From positions 1 through 16,861 of the forward strand of contig SMYP01000022.1 in the NCBI GenBank assembly GCA_007050895.1: a stretch of DNA of 16,861 bases. Reading direction: 5' to 3'. Under the pieces are notes generated by a model, which saw only the letters and a list, made by a program, of their open reading frames with translations, had not been told where the DNA came from and did no database searches. The stretch comes from Candidatus Bathyarchaeota archaeon (GTDB lineage: Archaea > Thermoproteota > Bathyarchaeia > Bathyarchaeales > UBA233). The position numbers and the translations under genes were made by a program. The number at the start of each line of letters is the position of its first letter. The stretch's first letter is position 1. Below are positions 1-16,861 of the stretch, piece after piece.

Positions 1-358
1 TTATGGTTATGTTTCCCACGTTTTTGTCAAAGAAAGTGTCTCCGCTGTTTAAGTCTGCCGGAATAATGAAGTCGTCGCCGAGCTGTCCAATCTCCAAATT
101 CAAAGTTACACTTATAGTCTCCCTTGTTCCATTAGAGTACTCCACCATAATTGCAACATTCACACTTTTTCCTTGAACATCCTCAATCTCCATTCGAGCC
201 CAAGTTACATCATGTCCTTCAGTCGGAGTTCCCGTGTAATTCACGTTGTACTCTATCCAGTCTCCCGTTTTCACACCCACCGAAACTTCAGCCAAAACGG
301 TATCGATAAATGAGAAAACCGTGAACAAGACAATTATTAGACCGAGTTTTCTACACAT
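1..358 (-). CDS. Secreted protein of unknown function, 3' part cut by window edge
   Basis: An open frame runs from ATG at 358 to the window edge without a stop, giving 119 visible residues. The start MCRKLGLIIVLFTVFSF followed by VLA is a signal peptide, with cleavage likely near residue 23 (VLA-E). The mature part begins VSVGVKTGDWIEYNV and has alternating beta-strand character, with two N-glycosylation-type sequons (NYT, NGT). The GDWIEY opening followed by a GDDFIIPADLN stretch resembles a family of secreted or membrane-attached beta-rich proteins that I associate with Bathyarchaeia and Thaumarchaeota; its role is not known to me. The C-terminus, where a membrane anchor might sit, lies outside the window. 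A TATA-like stretch lies about 35 bases upstream of the start. No function can be assigned. Confidence 0.75.
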   Translation of the reverse strand, partial: MCRKLGLIIVLFTVFSFIDTVLAEVSVGVKTGDWIEYNVNYTGTPTEGHDVTWARMEIEDVQGKSVNVAIMVEYSNGTRETISVTLNLEIGQLGDDFIIPADLNSGDTFFDKNVGNITI

Positions 359-637: not shown

Positions 638-1696
638 TCATATGAGGCTATTTCTATTTTCTATTAACTCCTTAACCGTTATCATTTGTATGTCAAACCC
701 GTAACTCATCTTAGCTCGGACTCTCCCTCTAATTGCATCAGCACCAAAACCAAAAGCAATAATTGTTCCTTTTCTAGCATTGCGACGACCAATTGCAGCT
801 GCAAAGTTTTCAATTGCGTTTCTGCCGACATCAGTCTCCTGTTTTATCGAAACTGGTTGACCATCAAGCGCGTAGCCGTCTATTCCCACGCGAGAGTCAC
901 TTGGTGAAGACGATTTACCAGCCAATCTTTTAAGAACCCAATTTTGAAATTCACCGGCTGGCATTTTTCTAAGGTCTTCTTCCTTCAACCCTTTTTTCTT
1001 GACGAATACATAAGCGGCTGTGACAACTCCCGCTACCACTGCAACTGCGACCACTCCATATGTGGTTCCCCCAATGTCAAGATCAGCGTTCCGTTCTCCA
1101 CCCTCCACTCCCAAGCCATTACATTCGGGGCATTCAATAAATCCTGTTCCATCACATTGTGGGCATTCAATTGTAGCGGGTGTCAACCCGGTTCCACTAC
1201 AATACGGACATGGAACATTTTCAGCTTCGAGAGTGATGTTGGTTGAGAATACTTGCTGCGCTTGGAGCGTGTTGTAGTCTTCAGATGAAACTCCATCTAT
1301 TGTCAAAGATACTTGAATAACTTCGTTCGCTGGGAACAGAGTACGGGGTGAGGTGGAAGCATAGGTGTTGTCTTTTACTTCTACTGCGGCGGTAACCCTT
1401 CCATAAGTGTTGATGGACTCTCTATTTTCGTAGCTGATTTGCACAGATATTTTCCCATCGTTCAACCAAGCCGACCTGCTCTTTTGAATGACTACGGGCT
1501 CTAACGTTCCAGATCCCTCACATCGTTCGCAAGGAGCCCCTTCTTGCACCGTTATTTCACCCTCACCATCACAGTATGGACACACTAACTCGCCAGTTCC
1601 GTCACATCGTGGGCACTGTGCCATAGTTAATGCTACGCTTGATGTCAAACAAAAAAGAAACGCAATAGACACAACCATCAGCGACTTATTCTTCAT
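638..1696 (-). CDS. Six DnaJ-type zinc repeats, membrane segment and Mrr-like nuclease-fold domain
   Basis: The 352-residue protein has three parts. Residues 1-26 are a signal peptide or signal anchor (cleavage likely TMA-Q). Six CxxCxGxG repeats, as in the DnaJ/Hsp40 zinc domain, begin at C28, C39, C56 and then C163, C178, C189, flanking a beta-rich segment (about 65-160). A single membrane helix spans about 209-231 and is followed by FVKKK, so by the positive-inside rule the zinc part is outside and the C-terminus is in the cytoplasm. Residues 241-352 resemble Mrr-like restriction-endonuclease-fold domains: the GEFQNWVLKRL helix, then GIDG (D273), then VSIKQ (K285) and an AIENFAAAI helix. 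D273 and K285 fit the PD-(D/E)xK core, but the D/E/Q two positions before the lysine is Ser283. No J domain is present, so this is not DnaJ. Function is unknown: zinc or redox sensing outside linked to a DNA-binding or nuclease domain inside is an inference. The start is ATG with a TATA-like box about 20-25 bases upstream. Confidence 0.85.
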   Translation of the reverse strand: MKNKSLMVVSIAFLFCLTSSVALTMAQCPRCDGTGELVCPYCDGEGEITVQEGAPCERCEGSGTLEPVVIQKSRSAWLNDGKISVQISYENRESINTYGRVTAAVEVKDNTYASTSPRTLFPANEVIQVSLTIDGVSSEDYNTLQAQQVFSTNITLEAENVPCPYCSGTGLTPATIECPQCDGTGFIECPECNGLGVEGGERNADLDIGGTTYGVVAVAVVAGVVTAAYVFVKKKGLKEEDLRKMPAGEFQNWVLKRLAGKSSSPSDSRVGIDGYALDGQPVSIKQETDVGRNAIENFAAAIGRRNARKGTIIAFGFGADAIRGRVRAKMSYGFDIQMITVKELIENRNSLI

Positions 1697-2089: not shown

Positions 2090-2464
2090 TTATTCTTCCT
2101 CGTTGTCAAAAGCCATTACCCTAATAGCGCTGTCGTCTTGCTCGGGGTCCCCTTCAGAAGCATAGTTTGTTCGAAAGTTTTCCTGATTTTCGGGTTTTTC
2201 GATCTCCACGTCGTCTTCTTTGAGGGTGTTGCCCCTTGCCAGCTGCTCCAATCGGTTCTCCAACATGTCGATTCGGGTTGATAGCTGATTTATTGTTTGC
2301 TTCTTAGCAGCGTTATCGTTTCTTAACTCTTGAATTGCCACTTTTTCGGTTAGTATTCTAAAAAGTGTTTCCAATTGCTTTAGTTTTTCATCTAAAGCCC
2401 GCGATTCTTCATCTAATCGTGCTTTCTCATCTTGTAATCGTTCAAGTTCAAAGGATGTATCCAA
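2090..2464 (-). CDS. Orphan coiled-coil protein with acidic tail
   Basis: A 124-residue protein whose residues 3-78 form a continuous heptad-like coiled coil rich in Glu, Lys, Leu and Arg (for example ELERLQDEKARLDEESRALD). The remaining 45 residues are hydrophilic and strongly acidic, ending AFDNEEE, and look disordered. There are no Cys, catalytic motifs, signal peptide or membrane segments. The start is TTG at 2464: no ATG or GTG occurs between it and the upstream in-frame stop, and later starts would cut into the coiled coil. The gene stands alone, with spacers of over 300 bases on both sides. Coiled-coil composition makes weak matches to SMC-, prefoldin- or tropomyosin-like proteins meaningless. 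It is probably a real gene, since the frame is clean and the protein has consistent character, but the role is unknown. Confidence 0.6.
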   Translation of the reverse strand: MDTSFELERLQDEKARLDEESRALDEKLKQLETLFRILTEKVAIQELRNDNAAKKQTINQLSTRIDMLENRLEQLARGNTLKEDDVEIEKPENQENFRTNYASEGDPEQDDSAIRVMAFDNEEE

Positions 2465-4745: not shown

Positions 4746-6572
4746 GTGGTAATAGGGGTGGATGGGTTTTTGGAACCGAAATGCGCGTTAAGATGTCCTG
4801 TCTGCGGAACCCTAATAGACCCAAGTGACACGCTAACAAGAATGCAGATAACTTATGATACTTTTGGAGGAAAAAAATATTGTTTCTGCAGTAAAAACTG
4901 CAGACAACATTTCATAGAAGACCCAAGAATAGCGTATTTCTCGATGGAAATAGGCATAATCAAAGATGTTCCAACTTATAGTGGTGGCTTGGGCGTTTTG
5001 GCAGGAGATATCGTGAAAGCCAGTGCGGATTTAAAGTTACAAATGGTAGCATTGACCTTGGCAAGCAGGAAAGGATATTTCAGACAGAAACTTACAGATC
5101 GGGGCGAACAGCAAGAATTTCCAGACGAGTGGGATCCTTCTAAATCCTTGTTCCGCATGCCAAAGATGACCACGGTAACAATTGAAGGTCGCCAAGTGAA
5201 GGTGCAGGCTTGGCTGTACGAGTATCAAAGTCCCACAGGAGGAATGGTCCCGATTCTTTTTTTGGACACTGATGTGGAAGGCAACTCTGAAGAAGATAGA
5301 AGAATTACGGACCATCTTTATGGTGGCGATAAGCGGTACAGGTTTAAGCAAGAGATTGTGCTTGGGATAGGCGGCGTAAAGCTTCTAAATGAATTGGGAT
5401 TTAAGGTTAGAAAATATCATATGAATGAGGGGCATTCTGCGCTTTTAACTTTCGAGTTGTTGAAAGAGAAAAATATGGACGCTGAAAAAGTTCAGTCTCT
5501 TTGCGTTTTTACGACCCACACTCCAATTGAAGCCGCCTTTGATCAGTTCTCTTATGACATGGTTGAAGAGGTGTTAGGTAAAGAATATTGGATGTTGAAT
5601 GTGAAGCAACATGCTGGTCACGATAATTTAAACATGACATATTTGGCTTTGAACTTGAGCAAGTATGTAAATGGAGTTTCCAAGGCTCATATGGAATATT
5701 CCAGGAAGCTTTTTCCAGGTCACTACATTAGATCTGTTACTAATGGGGTTCACTCTTACACCTGGACTTGCCCTTCTTTCAGAGCACTTTTTGATAAGTA
5801 TATTCCAAGCTGGGCAAATGAGCCTATTTTATTAGTTAGAGCTTTGGAAATTCCGAATCAGGAAGTTTGGGATGCTCATGTTAAGGCAAAAACAGATCTA
5901 ATTGACTTTGTTGAAAAAAGTAAAGGCATAAAGTTGGATTCTGAGGTTTTAACTATTGGTTTTGCCAGAAGAGCCACAGGGTACAAGAGATCAACGTTGA
6001 TTTTCTCTGACTTGCACAGATTGCTGGAAGTGAATAAGAGCGGAAAAATACAGATGGTATTTGCAGGGAAAGCACATCCGAGGGATGTGGATGGTAAAAA
6101 GCTGATAAGGGAGATTCACGAATACGCAGACAAACTGAAAGACCAGATTAAAATTGTATATCTTGAAAATTATGACTTGGAGGTTGCGAGTAAGCTCACA
6201 TCAGGGGTTGACGTTTGGCTTAACACTCCTGTTCCACCGATGGAAGCCTCGGGAACCAGCGGGATGAAAGCGGCTCACAATGGCGTGGTAAACTTTAGCG
6301 TCTTGGATGGCTGGTGGGTTGAAGGATGTGTAGAGGGAGTAACGGGTTGGTCGATTGGGCCGCATCCAAAAGAGTTTGTCATTGATGAGGAAAGAAAAGA
6401 GGTTGAGCTTCGGGATTTGTATAGCAAACTGGAGTATTTGATTGCACCAACTTTTTATGGCCAGAGAGATGCTTGGATAGATTTGATGAAAAACTCCATT
6501 GCTAGGATTGCACATTACTTCCAGATTCAATGGGTCATGCGAAGATACATCACGGAAGCCTACATTATTTAG
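4746..6572 (+). CDS. Alpha-glucan phosphorylase (GT35) with N-terminal YHS domain
   Basis: A 608-residue protein. Residues 13-60 are a YHS-type metal-binding module (C13, C17, C20, then C46, C48 and C52 in YCFCSKNC, ending FIEDP). From residue 62 comes a complete short-form alpha-glucan phosphorylase: IAYFSMEIGI, YSGGLGVLAGD (79-88), YHMNEGH (224-230), QHAGHDN (288-294), FARRATGYKR (406-415), GKAHP (441-445) and PMEASGTSGMKAAHNG (498-513) with K508 as the pyridoxal-phosphate lysine. It should split alpha-1,4-glucan with phosphate to glucose-1-phosphate in the cytoplasm. It lacks the DUF3417 N-terminal domain of longer archaeal/bacterial forms, the YHS module standing in its place. Its C-terminus looks complete. 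The start is uncertain: GTG at 4746 or GTG at 4758, with no ATG available before the first cysteine. It is divergent from the aldolase operon across about 110 bases. Confidence 0.9.
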   Translation: MVIGVDGFLEPKCALRCPVCGTLIDPSDTLTRMQITYDTFGGKKYCFCSKNCRQHFIEDPRIAYFSMEIGIIKDVPTYSGGLGVLAGDIVKASADLKLQMVALTLASRKGYFRQKLTDRGEQQEFPDEWDPSKSLFRMPKMTTVTIEGRQVKVQAWLYEYQSPTGGMVPILFLDTDVEGNSEEDRRITDHLYGGDKRYRFKQEIVLGIGGVKLLNELGFKVRKYHMNEGHSALLTFELLKEKNMDAEKVQSLCVFTTHTPIEAAFDQFSYDMVEEVLGKEYWMLNVKQHAGHDNLNMTYLALNLSKYVNGVSKAHMEYSRKLFPGHYIRSVTNGVHSYTWTCPSFRALFDKYIPSWANEPILLVRALEIPNQEVWDAHVKAKTDLIDFVEKSKGIKLDSEVLTIGFARRATGYKRSTLIFSDLHRLLEVNKSGKIQMVFAGKAHPRDVDGKKLIREIHEYADKLKDQIKIVYLENYDLEVASKLTSGVDVWLNTPVPPMEASGTSGMKAAHNGVVNFSVLDGWWVEGCVEGVTGWSIGPHPKEFVIDEERKEVELRDLYSKLEYLIAPTFYGQRDAWIDLMKNSIARIAHYFQIQWVMRRYITEAYII

Positions 6573-7108: not shown

Positions 7109-7561
7109 GTGAGTGCTTTAGATAGGATTGGAGATGCGGAGGATCAACTTAATGTTAGTGCCTTCCACACGTATGTTTATCTAGTTAAAGCGGGAAAGCC
7201 TGTTGGACCAAGAGAGGTGATGCGAGGGGCAAACCTCACCAGTCCCAGTGTAGCTTATAGAAACCTTCAAAAACTTATTGACTTAGGCTTGGTACTTAAA
7301 GATGAGTATGGCAATTATGCTGTAAAAGAAAAAGTGGGTCTTAAAGGTCATGTTTGGCTGGGAAAAACTTTCGTCCCGCGATTCATCGTTTTCGGGTTTA
7401 TTTTCGTAGGCGTCTTGATCGCCGAATTAGCTATACTTATTCCCCATCTCTTCTTTAAGACTTCCGTTGAAGGCTCCTTCTGGCTTTTGACAATAATAAC
7501 GATAGTTGCCGCAGCAATTTTCCTACTTGAAGGGTCAAGGTTCCGAAAGAAGAGAGGATAA
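7109..7561 (+). CDS. Membrane-anchored winged-helix protein
   Basis: A 150-residue protein with an N-terminal winged helix-turn-helix (about 12-76: a helix through FHTYVYLVKAG, PVGPREVMRGANLTSPSVAYRNLQKLIDLGLV as the turn and recognition helix, and a short wing DEYGNYAV). Two membrane helices follow (about 90-114 and 124-141) and a basic tail RFRKKRG. By the positive-inside rule both the DNA-binding domain and the tail face the cytoplasm, giving a membrane-tethered regulator. The winged helix is of the MarR/ArsR/TrmB-like style common in archaea. No ligand or sensor domain is visible beyond the membrane hairpin. GTG at 7109 follows a TTTTATGC stretch about 25 bases upstream, which suggests a leaderless transcript. 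The target is unknown; nearest candidates are its own promoter region and the divergent ribbon-helix-helix gene. Confidence 0.75.
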   Translation: MSALDRIGDAEDQLNVSAFHTYVYLVKAGKPVGPREVMRGANLTSPSVAYRNLQKLIDLGLVLKDEYGNYAVKEKVGLKGHVWLGKTFVPRFIVFGFIFVGVLIAELAILIPHLFFKTSVEGSFWLLTIITIVAAAIFLLEGSRFRKKRG

Positions 7562-12670: not shown

Positions 12671-13258
12671 TTAGCTCTCCGCCTTTATTGCTTCTCCGAA
12701 TATTCTTTTTAACTCCCTCTTCATCGCTGCAGTGTCATGGGTCAATCCGAAGTAATCGGCGAAGTGGTCGGTTGTTCTCAGATTCATAGAACGTCCAGCT
12801 CGCTCAGCCACAACTAGACCCATATCCCTGAGAAGCTTTACGTGACCATAAGCATGCTGGCCTCTAGCTTGAATTACTCTTTTCTGAGGGACAGGTTGTC
12901 GATAAGCTATGTAAGACAACGTTTTTAATGGTCCAGAGGAAAGTAAAGGTCTATTAACGAGTTTCTTAACAAGTGGAGTGAAATCCGCTTTTAACTGCAA
13001 AACATAGCGTTCATCCTTCAGTTCCAAAATTTCAAGTGCAGTGTTCCTAGCTGAGTATTCTTCCATTAACATTTTAAGGTATTTAGCAGTTTTATTTTTC
13101 GATCGCGTGCTAAGAACCGAACATAATTCGTTGAGCGTTAGAGGGCGACCGGAAACATACAATGCAGCCTCTAATAGTCGTAGTCGACGCTGCCTCTTCT
13201 GTTCTTGCACTTCCGTTATCTTATCTTGCAAGTTATCGGTTTGTTCCTTCTTCTGCAA
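12671..13258 (-). CDS. scpB: Condensin partner ScpB, last gene of smc-scpA-scpB operon
   Basis: A 195-residue protein of the ScpB (kite) family, which dimerises and binds the kleisin ScpA to complete the SMC ring. It has a charged N-terminal extension (1-22) and two winged-helix domains: about 23-100 (LRLLEAALYVSGRPLTLNEL, then ERYVLQLKADFTPLVKKL) and about 105-190 (LLSSGPLKTLSYIAYRQPV, VIQARGQHAYGHVKLLRDMGLV, GRSMNLRTTDHFADYFGL). The family's stretch 'L..TLa.IAY.QPi....I...RG' is clear. The start is TTG at 13258 inside the end of scpA, giving a 26-base overlap and probable translational coupling; no later ATG, GTG or TTG keeps the first helix. It acts with SMC and ScpA in chromosome compaction and segregation. 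Confidence 0.9.
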   Translation of the reverse strand: MQKKEQTDNLQDKITEVQEQKRQRRLRLLEAALYVSGRPLTLNELCSVLSTRSKNKTAKYLKMLMEEYSARNTALEILELKDERYVLQLKADFTPLVKKLVNRPLLSSGPLKTLSYIAYRQPVPQKRVIQARGQHAYGHVKLLRDMGLVVAERAGRSMNLRTTDHFADYFGLTHDTAAMKRELKRIFGEAIKAES

Positions 13259-13928
13259 TGTTTAAGTTCCCCACAGCTATGTATAATTCTTCGGTTTGCT
13301 CGTTCTGCCACAAATCTACTTTCCCGTCTTGCACCAGAAACAACAACAGAATAAACGTGCGCACCGCTTCTATTCGGTCAAACTCTTTTGTGAGAGTTGA
13401 AAATTCGATTATTCCAGCTCCTTTAACTTTCTCGCATAGAAGTGCATACAGCGTCTGCATTTTTGACTCAAGTTCCGCCAAGAACGCGTCAAACTTTGGC
13501 AAGAGATCAGTAACGGCTGGAAGAACAGGCTGCGAGACAACCCTGTCGAGGCGATTCAGCTTTTCACCTTTTAATACTTCATCCAAAACCTCTAACAAAT
13601 TTTGTATAGTAGTTGAGGTTAATTCATGCCTTAGAGGCAGAAACAGCGGTGGCGGAATAAAATCTGGAGGAGGCTTCGGAGGTGCTGGCGGTTCTTGAAG
13701 AGTTAGCAGAAGCTTAGACTTCATCAAGTAGATTAGCGCAGATGAATCCAACGCAACACCGGAAGCTCTGAAATCCACCTTTCCTGTACGTTCCATCTCC
13801 GAAAGAAAAGACTGGAGCAGGTAAGAGATATTAACGTTCCAAGGCTTGAGTTTTTCAAGTTTATTTAGCTCAAAGAGAATATTCCATGGAGGCCTCAGGT
13901 AAAAAGGTCTTCTCACTGCAGTTGACAC
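13233..13928 (-). CDS. scpA: Kleisin ScpA of the SMC complex
   Basis: A 231-residue kleisin that bridges the SMC heads. The N-terminal helical region (12-45: RPPWNILFELNKLEKLKPWNVNISYL) matches the 'LL.Li....ldpwdi.I..l...yl' helix that binds the SMC neck, and LDSSALIYLMKSKLLL (60-75) follows it. The usual GPLDLLL loop is changed to RPPWNILFEL. A proline-rich linker (80-98) and a middle ScpB-binding region come next. The C-terminal winged helix (about 170-225: FSTLTKEFDRIEAVRTFILLLFLVQDGKVDLWQ, then EELYIAV) binds the SMC cap. The GTG start shares one base with the smc stop (TAGTG), so translation is probably coupled. A second in-frame GTG four codons later is the alternative start. Confidence 0.9.
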   Translation of the reverse strand: MSTAVRRPFYLRPPWNILFELNKLEKLKPWNVNISYLLQSFLSEMERTGKVDFRASGVALDSSALIYLMKSKLLLTLQEPPAPPKPPPDFIPPPLFLPLRHELTSTTIQNLLEVLDEVLKGEKLNRLDRVVSQPVLPAVTDLLPKFDAFLAELESKMQTLYALLCEKVKGAGIIEFSTLTKEFDRIEAVRTFILLLFLVQDGKVDLWQNEQTEELYIAVGNLNIAEEGTNR

Positions 13929-16861
13929 TAACTGGTCGCCTCCAAGAATCTTGCTGATACAACGCTAGATACTCCATTTCGCTCGTAAACTCCATAAATC
14001 TTCTGAGCTTTATTCACCATCTCAGGCTTTAAAGTAATAACTATAAACTGAATTTGTCCAGATTCCTCTAACAACAAGTCAGCAAGTTTAGTAGTGTGAA
14101 ATGCATCAAGATGTGCATCAACCTCGTCAAGAATATAAAACGACGAAGGGGTAAAATCTTTCAAAGCAAAAATGAAAGCGACAGCTGAAACAGAACGTTC
14201 GCCACCACTTGCCCCACTGACAACTATCGATGGCTTATCTGGAAACTGAACAAGCATATCTATCCCACCGTGGAAAGGCTCGTCAGGATTCTCAAGCTGC
14301 AAAACAGCAGAACCCCCTCCAGTGAGTTTCGAAAAGTAGGTATTAAGATTAAGGTTAATTTTCTCAAATGCATCCATGAAAACCTTGCGTTTCCTAGCTT
14401 CAATTTCATCCATAAACTGCACGATTGCCTGTTTTTCTCTTTCAAGCTCATTTAAACGCAAAGATAACTCTCGATATCTAGAAATCTGCTCTTCGTAATG
14501 CGACAAGGCAAGCTGATTCACTCCGCCTATTCTTTCAATCTCGAACCTCATCATTCTCATCGAGGTTTCAGCTGCCGCAACTTGCTTGTCCGTCGTTTCA
14601 AAAGGTTGTTCATAACCGAACTGTCTAAGCTGGCTTAACTGCTGCTGAAGCTGCATCTGAGAAGTCTGAATATTCAACTGCAGCTGATTTAGAAGCATCT
14701 CAGACTCCTCGTATTCCGCGTCAAGAAACCGAAGTTCATCGTCAATAGCGTCAATCTGCGATGTGAACTTTTTAGCTTCCTCTCTCGCAGAGAAAACCGC
14801 CTTAGAGAGTTCGATACGGCTTTTTTCCAAATCAGCTATTTCCTGCTTCAGTGCTTCACGTTCCTGAAGCGCTTCAGAAACTTCCTTTTCCATTTTACCG
14901 TGTTGCTGCTCAACCTTGGAAAGCTGAATTTTAGCATTTTGGTATCCCACTCGCAGAACATTATCAAACTGGGATTGCTTCGTGGACATTTCAGTTTGAA
15001 CCGTGCCTAAATTCTGCCTAAGGGCAATTATTTCCTCAGCCAGCTTTTCCCGCTTAACCTCTAAATCCTGAATGCGCCCAACATCGGTCTTCTTCCTCAA
15101 CTCGCCTAACTCAGCTTGTAACTTCTGAATTTCCTTTCGAATCGCGGTTCTTTCAGACTTGTATAGTCCGATATGTTCTCTTGCTGTCTCTATTTCTTTT
15201 TCAATTTTCGCACAGTACCTCTCCACGCGCCGCACGTTGACTTCAGTTCGCTTGACGTTCCACTTGACCCTGACCATTTCCCTGTCAAGAGTGACGATGG
15301 AATCCGACAATCGTGCAATCTCAATCTTGGTGCGCTCGATCTCCTCCTCAAAAACAGACATGTCAGTGTCTCTCTGGGAGAGATGCTGCTGAAGTGCCTT
15401 CACAGCTTCATCAAGGCTTTTAATCGCGTTTTCACTGGGAATAAGCTTTGAAAAATCTATAGGAGATCTGTAATAGCCGCTTTCGAAGCCACCTCCAGCC
15501 TCGTAAAGGTTTCCATTAATGGTTACTGTTCGATAGCCTTCACTTGAAAGAGCAAACGCATTCTTATCGTTAGAAACGATTAACGTATCTCCAAAAACAT
15601 AGTTTATTGCTGTATCAAAAGTTCGCGCGCACTTAACAAAGTCTGAAGCAACGCCAGTAACGCCCTGTCCTTGAGGTAGCGTTATAGGGTTAGGATTAGA
15701 AGCACCTTGAAGCGGAATAATCTTTATTCTGCCCAGCTTCATCTTCTTCAAAGTTTCGGTACACATGAAAGCGACATCAATGTCTTTCACAATTAAAGCG
15801 TTAAGCCATCCGGCCGCAGCCGCTACTATTGCTTTCCTGTAAGTCTTTTCAACCTTAATCAGCTTTCGCACTCGCCCATAAATGCCTGAGATGGCACCTA
15901 AATTTCCGAGTTCCTCTATGTTTCTCAGTGCTTTCTCTTCAGCTGCAACAGTTTCTGCGAGTTCCCGTTGCGTAACGAATTCTATAACTGCTTCCTTGGC
16001 AGAACTTGCGATTTTTCCCGCTTCGGAAATTTCTCTTTCCACAGATTCTCTTTGGGCAGTCCTCCGGTTAAGAGTAAATTCGAGACTTTTAAGCCGCGCT
16101 TTCTGCTCTTTTTGGACCTTGTCAAGCTCACTAAGCGAGTTTTCAATTTCCTCGAGCGTCTCTATGAACCGAGTTTTGCGATCGTTCAGTTCCCTGAGCC
16201 TTCTAGAGCTAAGTTTGATAGCATTTTGCTCCTTCAAATACTCTGATCTCAAAAAGGCAAGTTTCCTATAGCGCCCGTCAGTTTGATTTTCGAGCTGGCG
16301 GATTTTCTTGCTGTTCTCGCCGAGTCCTCCCCAAAGTTGAGCCGTCTCTTGCGCCAGAGCTTCATGTTCAATTTCTTTTCCACTAATCTGGGACTGTAGG
16401 TCTTCTTGTTCACGCCGAAGCTTTCTTATTTGTAACCGATTTTCTTGAATCTCCTTTCTAATGGACTGATACTGCTCGAGGTTGTTGGCGCTAACACGCT
16501 TTAGGCTTTCAAGACTGGCTTGTCCCGCGCTTATTTTTGTGTTAATCTCAGTAAGTCTTGATTTCAATTCCCCAATTTTTATCTGCACCTTCAGTACTTG
16601 CGAACCGCCTTCCTCAACCATTTCTGAGCTAAGTTTCCGCCACTCACCTTCCACTGCTCTCCTTTTTGTTCTTTGGTCGTTTCTGGATTCGCGGAACTTC
16701 TCAACTTTGCTCCTTACCTTGTCAGCTTGCGATGAGACGCCTTCAACCTTCTTGTTTAGCTGAACCACTTCATGGGAGATTTTTACTGCTTCAAACTTCT
16801 TTAACTCATTCTGGATGAAGTTGTAACGCAAAAGTTCATTTCGTTCCCTTTCAAGGTCGTC
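13928..16861 (-). CDS. smc: SMC chromosome-condensation ATPase, 5' end cut by window edge
   Basis: The frame is open to the window edge, giving 977 residues; the TTG at 16831 is internal, not a start. The missing N-terminus (roughly 200 residues) holds the Walker A head. What is visible is the end of the N-terminal part and a long coiled coil (to about 310), the hinge domain (about 315-465, with GISGIYGRVRKLI-like LGAISGIYGRVRKLI and a glycine-rich NLYEAGGGFESGYY end), the return coiled coil, and the C-terminal ATPase head. The head has signature SGASGGERSVSAVAFIFAL (about 14190-14225), Walker B FYILDEVDAHLD (about 14105-14140) and the switch region FIVITLKPEM. SMC dimerises at the hinge and uses ATP to bind and extrude DNA with ScpA and ScpB, which follow in the same operon. 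Confidence 0.95.
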   Translation of the reverse strand, partial: DDLERERNELLRYNFIQNELKKFEAVKISHEVVQLNKKVEGVSSQADKVRSKVEKFRESRNDQRTKRRAVEGEWRKLSSEMVEEGGSQVLKVQIKIGELKSRLTEINTKISAGQASLESLKRVSANNLEQYQSIRKEIQENRLQIRKLRREQEDLQSQISGKEIEHEALAQETAQLWGGLGENSKKIRQLENQTDGRYRKLAFLRSEYLKEQNAIKLSSRRLRELNDRKTRFIETLEEIENSLSELDKVQKEQKARLKSLEFTLNRRTAQRESVEREISEAGKIASSAKEAVIEFVTQRELAETVAAEEKALRNIEELGNLGAISGIYGRVRKLIKVEKTYRKAIVAAAAGWLNALIVKDIDVAFMCTETLKKMKLGRIKIIPLQGASNPNPITLPQGQGVTGVASDFVKCARTFDTAINYVFGDTLIVSNDKNAFALSSEGYRTVTINGNLYEAGGGFESGYYRSPIDFSKLIPSENAIKSLDEAVKALQQHLSQRDTDMSVFEEEIERTKIEIARLSDSIVTLDREMVRVKWNVKRTEVNVRRVERYCAKIEKEIETAREHIGLYKSERTAIRKEIQKLQAELGELRKKTDVGRIQDLEVKREKLAEEIIALRQNLGTVQTEMSTKQSQFDNVLRVGYQNAKIQLSKVEQQHGKMEKEVSEALQEREALKQEIADLEKSRIELSKAVFSAREEAKKFTSQIDAIDDELRFLDAEYEESEMLLNQLQLNIQTSQMQLQQQLSQLRQFGYEQPFETTDKQVAAAETSMRMMRFEIERIGGVNQLALSHYEEQISRYRELSLRLNELEREKQAIVQFMDEIEARKRKVFMDAFEKINLNLNTYFSKLTGGGSAVLQLENPDEPFHGGIDMLVQFPDKPSIVVSGASGGERSVSAVAFIFALKDFTPSSFYILDEVDAHLDAFHTTKLADLLLEESGQIQFIVITLKPEMVNKAQKIYGVYERNGVSSVVSARFLEATS

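What the first reader, a model, noticed from the sequence alone, without database searches (positions are those of the whole stretch)
638..1696. Extracytoplasmic six-repeat DnaJ-type zinc module fused across a membrane helix to an Mrr-like domain
CxxCxGxG repeats normally occur inside cytoplasmic DnaJ or in small redox proteins. Here a signal peptide, six repeats, a single membrane helix with a basic stop (KKK) and a C-terminal restriction-endonuclease-fold domain are combined in one protein. The predicted topology puts zinc or thiol chemistry outside and a DNA-type domain inside. That arrangement is unlike any standard nuclease or chaperone and could be a one-protein signalling or defence device.
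Basis: partly seen in the sequence, partly recalled or inferred. Interest (0 to 1): 0.75.

Follow-up and report, generated by a model that had tools for sequence, protein, structure and literature searches.

The report
Zinc-stalk membrane receptor with nuclease-derived tail
A conserved family of archaeal proteins that appears to stand on the cell surface on a zinc-rich stalk and to carry, inside the cell, a domain taken from a DNA-cutting enzyme whose cutting site has changed; it looks like a sensor whose function is not known.

Summary
The 352-aa ORF at 638-1696(-) encodes a signal sequence, three CxxCxGxG motifs, an Ig-like domain, three more motifs, one membrane helix and a PD-(D/E)xK-fold tail. 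It is no assembly error: 92 of 120 listed homologues and 12 of 256 genomes of the class have this order. The nearest relatives found outside the membrane proteins are C-terminal domains of PF01555 DNA methylases; the 120 best matches all keep D+QxK. Of 119 window-type proteins with letters there, 4 keep it: Gln is mostly Ser, Leu or Ala, while D, K and two nearby acids persist in 104. Motif numbers on the two sides of the Ig head are equal in 90 of 92, as a nested DnaJ-type zinc hairpin would need. Orthologues at the same endA locus have lost this ectodomain, and a paralogous lineage fuses the membrane-tail unit, its active site erased, to a CAP12-type TIR domain. I read the family as a single-pass receptor or scaffold whose nuclease-derived tail binds nucleic acid or partners, more likely than a restriction nuclease. 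A permuted, still active site is not excluded.

The parts
638..1696 (-). Whole gene, 352 aa, single-pass membrane protein
1616..1696 (-). Signal sequence, residues 1-27
   Evidence: hydropathy; coordinates; cleavage itself not tested
1508..1615 (-). N-terminal arm: CxxCxGxG motifs 1-3 (residues 28-63)
   Evidence: Pfam DnaJ_CXXCXGXG 32.4 bits for the protein against cut-off 32.7
1217..1498 (-). Ig-like beta-sandwich head, residues about 67-160
1109..1210 (-). C-terminal arm: CxxCxGxG motifs 4-6 (residues 163-196)
995..1075 (-). Membrane helix, residues about 208-234, followed by lysines
   Evidence: hydropathy; low pLDDT in the model
656..991 (-). Cytoplasmic PD-(D/E)xK-fold domain, residues about 236-347; E249, D273, S283-I-K285, Q286, E296
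2090..2464 (-). Neighbour: coiled-coil-like protein, 124 aa, next to the gene in window, L001, L002 and L050/L090 (4 of 4 of this clade examined)
2..358 (-). Neighbour, cut by the window end: signal sequence plus extracellular domain; the full relative L001 7157-7789 is 210 aa and ends in a hydrophobic stretch; present in the same 4 of 4

Best explanation
A single-pass receptor-like (or scaffold) membrane protein. Shown: domain order, fold class of the tail, motif conservation, homology of the tail to the methylase-linked Mrr-like domain, recombination of ectodomain and tail. Inferred: after signal-sequence export the two triplets of CxxCxGxG motifs pair as a nested hairpin (1 with 6, 2 with 5, 3 with 4), one zinc per pair, and form a stalk that presents an Ig-like head outside the cell. 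The membrane helix links it to a cytoplasmic domain derived from a DNA-methylase-associated nuclease. That domain has lost the canonical Gln of QxK but keeps D, K and neighbouring acids, so it most likely still binds metal and/or nucleic acid or a partner rather than acting as a restriction nuclease. Ligand binding or clustering outside would change its assembly inside. In one lineage a paralogue carries the same membrane-tail unit with the active site erased and a TIR domain added, which suggests that the tail can serve as an assembly platform for an effector.
For: Tail relatives: C-terminal part of PF01555 methylases (L066; 1931 proteins pass, best 120 listed). D+QxK: 120 of 120 listed methylase-linked, 4 of 119 window-type (A; one further row has no letters there), 0 of 120 TIR-type (C). 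In A, of 119: acid249 118, D273 117, K285 106, acid296 116, all four 104; in C all four 0 of 120. In 256 genomes of the class 24 have the tail: 12 full A, 1 broken A, 5 B (Thr/Pro-rich or low-complexity linker instead of the ectodomain), 12 C (9 of them beside A or B; in one, G461, the TIR part is cut off), 3 methylase type (genomes overlap between A/B and C). B and A occupy the same place beside endA in 5 of 5 B genomes and in 4 of 12 A genomes plus the broken A. In the tree B groups with two A rows (100/94), and B, C and eight A rows group (100/99). Motif counts N-side/C-side in 92 rows with N-termini: 83 (3,3), 7 (2,2), 1 (3,2), 1 (1,2); no cysteine outside CxxC in the mature part in 83 of 92. 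Architecture D, L044, has 4 and 4 (sequence). Model strands 36-38/186-188 and 47-55/171-177 lie between the motifs as a nested hairpin needs. A precedent for inactive enzymes kept as nucleic-acid receptors is proposed for inactive STAND NTPases (passages of PMC8195603).
Against: D273 and K285 are both kept in 105 of 119, more than a plain scaffold would need, so a working nuclease is possible. The 120 methylase rows are the best matches to one methylase; the other 1811 were not seen, and L067 (G492, where only the end of such a gene is open) has Asn at the Asp position with QxK kept. No ligand, partner or readout is known. No whole genome is held for the window's organism, and G001 and G002, which hold close relatives, have the A protein but no TIR-type paralogue and no PF10137 match. 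Strand pairing in the ectodomain was not read from coordinates; pTM is 0.40. Co-occurrence of A/B with C may be common descent. CheA/R/C/D/Y genes lie beside the trio in L001 and L002; on L090, whose contig starts 2.9 kb upstream of the trio, none was found, and CheC and CheD were not found in the window.
Confidence: 0.5

Rival explanations
1. Membrane-tethered active nuclease with a permuted active site. The Ser/Leu/Ala-x-Lys variant uses D273, K285 and the acid at 296 on the next helix, as CCGG-family restriction enzymes do (PD...K...D/E), and the protein degrades incoming DNA at the membrane.
For: D273+K285+acid296 in 105 of 119. Passages of PMC6344858 and PMC4652773 describe the permuted PD...K...D/E site; BsaWI's K165 to D175 spacing (+10) is close to K285 to E296 (+11). 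The tail's matches among the listed VIA rows are all DNA nucleases.
Against: The acid at 296 is present in 120 of 120 listed methylase-linked relatives that also have QxK, so it is probably inherited and no sign of a swap. Position 283 varies among S, L, A, Q, R, H, T and G, and Lys is Arg, Ser or Asn in 13 of 119. The spacing from D273 to K285 (12) is shorter than the X21-53 given for the CCGG family. In the TIR-type paralogues 2 of 120 keep both D and K.
Confidence: 0.25
2. Redox or chaperone-like surface protein: the CxxCxGxG arms act on thiols or on unfolded secreted proteins, and the tail is only an anchor.
For: Motifs resemble DnaJ, BSD2 and anti-TRAP zinc modules.
Against: Numbers of motifs on the two sides match in 90 of 92 and no spare cysteine is left in 83 of 92, as for structural zinc sites. 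The ectodomain is lost in B while the tail is kept, so the tail is not just an anchor.
Confidence: 0.12
3. Anti-virus defence receptor that reports to the TIR paralogue by contacts between the shared tails.
For: Same membrane-tail unit in A/B and C; 9 of 12 C genomes also have A or B, including 5 of 5 B genomes. C carries a CAP12-type TIR domain: PF10137 27.4 bits for L038, over the cut-off 24.7; L035 23.1, L037 20.6 and L034 15.9 are below it.
Against: 8 of 12 A genomes have no C match at E<=1e-3. The listed C proteins are 55-100% identical to the query over 78-100% of it, and the identified genes beside three C loci are housekeeping-like, unlike patchy defence genes. The likely TIR glutamate (E314; its equivalence is inferred) is Ala or Thr in 7 of 120. 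No PADLOC match at E<=0.01 to the one A, one B and two C proteins scanned.
Confidence: 0.13

Closest known systems
C-terminal Mrr_cat-like domain of archaeal PF01555 DNA methylases (L066 and 120 listed homologues)
   Same: Homologous domain over its whole length, same GIDG...P..(V/I)KQ core, same helix-1 F-x-x-W
   Different: Fused to a methylase, D+QxK intact in 120 of 120 listed; here membrane-bound and QxK kept in 4 of 119
DnaJ cysteine-rich domain / BSD2 / anti-TRAP
   Same: CxxCxGxG motifs; nested pairing fits
   Different: Outside the membrane, six motifs, an Ig-like domain between the two triplets, no J domain
CAP12/Pycsar TIR proteins (PF10137)
   Same: Only the TIR-type paralogues share this domain
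   Different: The window protein has no TIR domain
TMEM106B (human)
   Same: Single-pass, one CxxCxGxG motif able to bind zinc and an extracytoplasmic beta-sandwich; its luminal domain is among the Foldseek rows (8b7d, E 5.9e-4, but rmsd 15.1 A over 142 columns)
   Different: Type II orientation with a cytosolic N-terminus (passages of PMC9547799; that the motif is cytosolic is recalled), no nuclease-fold tail; loose analogy only
NA-iREase1 (NACHT-associated inactive restriction endonuclease, PF22722)
   Same: Another nuclease-fold domain named inactive; weak match in 5 of 17 tail domains (best E 0.011)
   Different: Attached to NACHT proteins by its name; other details recalled, not tested

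Membership tests
PD-(D/E)xK superfamily | alpha/beta nuclease fold | tested here: met
Mrr_cat (PF04471) | score over the curated cut-off | tested here: not met
   13.1 bits against 21; domain alone 16.1 bits, 13 of 17 tail domains match at E<=1
Active Mrr-type nuclease | D...(Q/E/D)xK | tested here: not met
   window has D273 and SIK; 4 of 119 window-type proteins with letters keep it
CCGG-type permuted nuclease site | PD...K...D/E with acid on the next helix | tested here: inconclusive
   D273, K285, acid296 in 105 of 119; geometry not measured
DnaJ cysteine-rich domain | paired CxxCxGxG motifs binding zinc | tested here: inconclusive
   six exact motifs, 32.4 bits against 32.7; zinc binding needs an experiment
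DnaJ chaperone | J domain | tested here: not met
   no J-domain family among the Pfam matches at E<=1
Known anti-phage defence systems (PADLOC) | match to a PADLOC model | tested here: not met
   no match at E<=0.01
Single-pass type I membrane receptor | N outside, C inside | not testable with these tools
   hydropathy and the lysines after the helix agree; topology needs an experiment

The most novel reading that the evidence does not exclude
A class of archaeal receptors in which a restriction-type nuclease domain was turned into a cytoplasmic relay module: a zinc-hairpin stalk with an Ig head senses outside, the nuclease-derived tail clusters or binds nucleic acid inside, and by contact of like tails it controls a membrane-bound TIR effector that carries the same domain with its site erased.
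Probability: 0.25. Interest if true: 0.85.

Novelty: new variant of a known kind. Interest (0 to 1): 0.6.

Why it matters
Archaeal transmembrane signalling outside chemotaxis and two-component systems is little known (my general knowledge). This family gives a natural series (methylase-linked nuclease domain with intact site, membrane form with altered site, TIR-linked form with erased site) that would show how a DNA-cutting domain becomes a signalling part. It also predicts a nested zinc hairpin of two, three or four levels that can be tested by mutation.

Tried and rejected
Whole-genome search of the window's own genome: none is held. PF27659, which newer precomputed annotation gives for many of the listed homologues, is not in the local Pfam, so its name and extent stay unknown: part of this protein has an entry in a newer Pfam, and novelty of a single domain is not claimed.

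Papers: eight searches were answered. Searches found none; some searches listed 7, 5 and 1 papers, none of whose titles or abstract starts describes this family; one search listed 10 of 975. These papers were not read through. PMC8195603, PMC6344858, PMC4652773 and PMC9547799 were seen as passages only.

Full report
What is there. The gene 638-1696(-) encodes 352 residues: signal sequence, CxxCxGxG motifs at 28-35, 39-46, 56-63, an Ig-like domain (about 67-160), motifs at 163-170, 178-185, 189-196, a membrane helix (about 208-234) followed by lysines, and an alpha/beta domain to the end. 0 of 20,000 shuffles of its residues reached two motifs. Twelve of its 13 cysteines are in the motifs; the other is in the signal sequence (sequence; count).

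Family. 144 proteins pass E 1e-3; the 120 listed are 37-100% identical to the window protein. In 398 genomes of the phylum of G001 (the genome of the Bathyarchaeota MAG L001), 32 have matches at 1e-3: 7 full length, 3 tail only, G311 without tail, and 21 weak ones; of the weak ones whose frames I printed, three are DnaJ proteins. In 256 genomes of its class, 24 have the tail. Sorting by open frames: A, full architecture, 12 (G001, G002, G114, G168, G198, G209, G233, G330, G456, G462, G466, G498; the search counts one TGA inside G168's match); broken A, G464; B, 5 (G132, G186, G338, G469, G472); C, 12 (G132, G186, G209, G330, G338, G460, G461, G462, G466, G467, G469, G472); methylase type, 3 (G413; G549, partly masked; G492, where only the end is open). 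No genome here has both A and B. The ectodomain profile finds 14 of 256 at E 1e-8: the same 12, G464 and G311. G311 is architecture D: four motifs, Ig-like, four motifs, membrane helix, no tail (L044 7271-8128+).

B is A without its head. The tRNA-splicing endonuclease gene endA lies next to B in 5 of 5 genomes, next to A in G209, G330, G462 and G466, and next to the broken A in G464; it was not found in the stretches held for the other 8 A genomes (Pfam identification). The tree puts B beside two A rows, P0107 and L061 (100/94), and C in a group with B and eight A rows (100/99); the methylase rows form one clade (100/100). The exact sister of C is open (84/77). With the methylase rows as outgroup, which is my assumption, A is the stem from which B and C came.

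Active site. Counts over the 120 listed proteins of each kind, methylase / A / C: D273 120, 117, 3; Gln as first residue of QxK 120, 5, 0; K285 120, 106, 44; acid at 249 120, 118, 31; acid at 296 120, 116, 90. One A row (P0047) has no letters there, so n is 119 for A. Against a clean contrast: L067 (G492) has Asn for the Asp while keeping QxK. A rows that keep QxK are P0081, P0083, P0084 and P0086; P0117 has QxR; P0119 and P0120 have His there. P0083, P0119, L049 and L059 lie closest to the methylase rows in the tree. So the membrane form probably began with an intact site and lost Gln, to several different residues, while D and K were mostly kept. Two readings remain. Passages of PMC6344858 and PMC4652773 show that restriction enzymes can use PD...K...D/E, so A may still cut. 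Or the site binds metal or nucleic acid only. In C, 2 of 120 keep both D and K.

Ectodomain. Of 92 rows with an N-terminus, 83 have three motifs on each side of the Ig head, 7 have two and two, and 2 are unequal. The (2,2) rows are P0091, P0092, P0095, P0113, P0117, P0118 and P0120; P0091, P0092, P0095 and P0113 lack motifs 1 and 6 by eye, so there are probably at least two separate losses, and D has four and four. Equal numbers fit a nested hairpin in which each level needs one motif from each arm, as in the DnaJ hairpin (the nested DnaJ pairing is recalled). The model's short strands lie where this needs them; distances were not measured. Because both ends of the hairpin meet the membrane, the Ig head would be at the far tip. 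Its best matches are mostly Ig-like domains of GH2 enzymes.

Surroundings. In the window, L001, L002 and G498 (L050/L090) the gene lies between a coiled-coil-like gene and a gene for a signal-sequence protein. L001 and L002 have CheA, CheR, two CheC-like, CheD and CheY genes upstream on the other strand. The window itself continues with housekeeping genes. Of ten genes scanned beside three C loci, the identified ones include Fe-ADH, aconitase, glyoxalase, a beta-CASP protein and a PALP enzyme.

TIR-type paralogue. PF10137 scores 27.4 bits for L038, over its cut-off 24.7, and 23.1, 20.6 and 15.9 for L035, L037 and L034. In the ten genomes searched with PF10137, the C genes of G186 and G330 pass the cut-off, that of G132 is below it and that of G209 is not listed. 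E314 is kept in 113 of 120 and the residues around 296-303 are nearly invariant. None of this is in the window; it bears on what the tail is for.

Verdict. A restriction device is not the likely function. A receptor or scaffold with a nuclease-derived cytoplasmic domain is the reading I prefer (0.5); an active permuted nuclease (0.25) is the main rival.

Noticed in passing
window 4746-6572 (+): Glucan phosphorylase-like ORF (PF00343) begins with a Cys-rich segment that looks like a YHS/TRASH metal-binding domain (recalled resemblance).
   Followed up: no
window 7109-7561 (+): Winged-helix-like (weak TrmB, E 0.013) protein with a hydrophobic C-terminal half: possibly a membrane-anchored transcription regulator.
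   Followed up: no
window 12671-16861 (-): ScpB and ScpA genes (PF04079, PF02616) after a long ORF that looks like SMC by its sequence (not scanned), in an archaeal window.
   Followed up: no
L044 7271-8128 (+): Architecture D: four motifs, Ig-like domain, four motifs, membrane helix and no nuclease-fold tail.
   Followed up: partly
L034 5466-6587 (-), L035, L036, L037, L038: Conserved membrane proteins: signal/TM, erased nuclease-fold domain, CAP12-type TIR domain; 171 homologues at E<=1e-3.
   Followed up: partly
L068/L089 (G464): Broken copy of the A gene with several stops beside a gene matching endA over its full length.
   Followed up: partly
L001 1-4797, L002: Che gene cluster (CheA, CheR, two CheC-like, CheD, CheY) upstream of the coiled-coil/A/secreted trio, on the opposite strand.
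   Followed up: partly
L067 1429-1830 (+): Methylase-tail-like ORF with Asn in place of the catalytic Asp but QxK kept.
   Followed up: no
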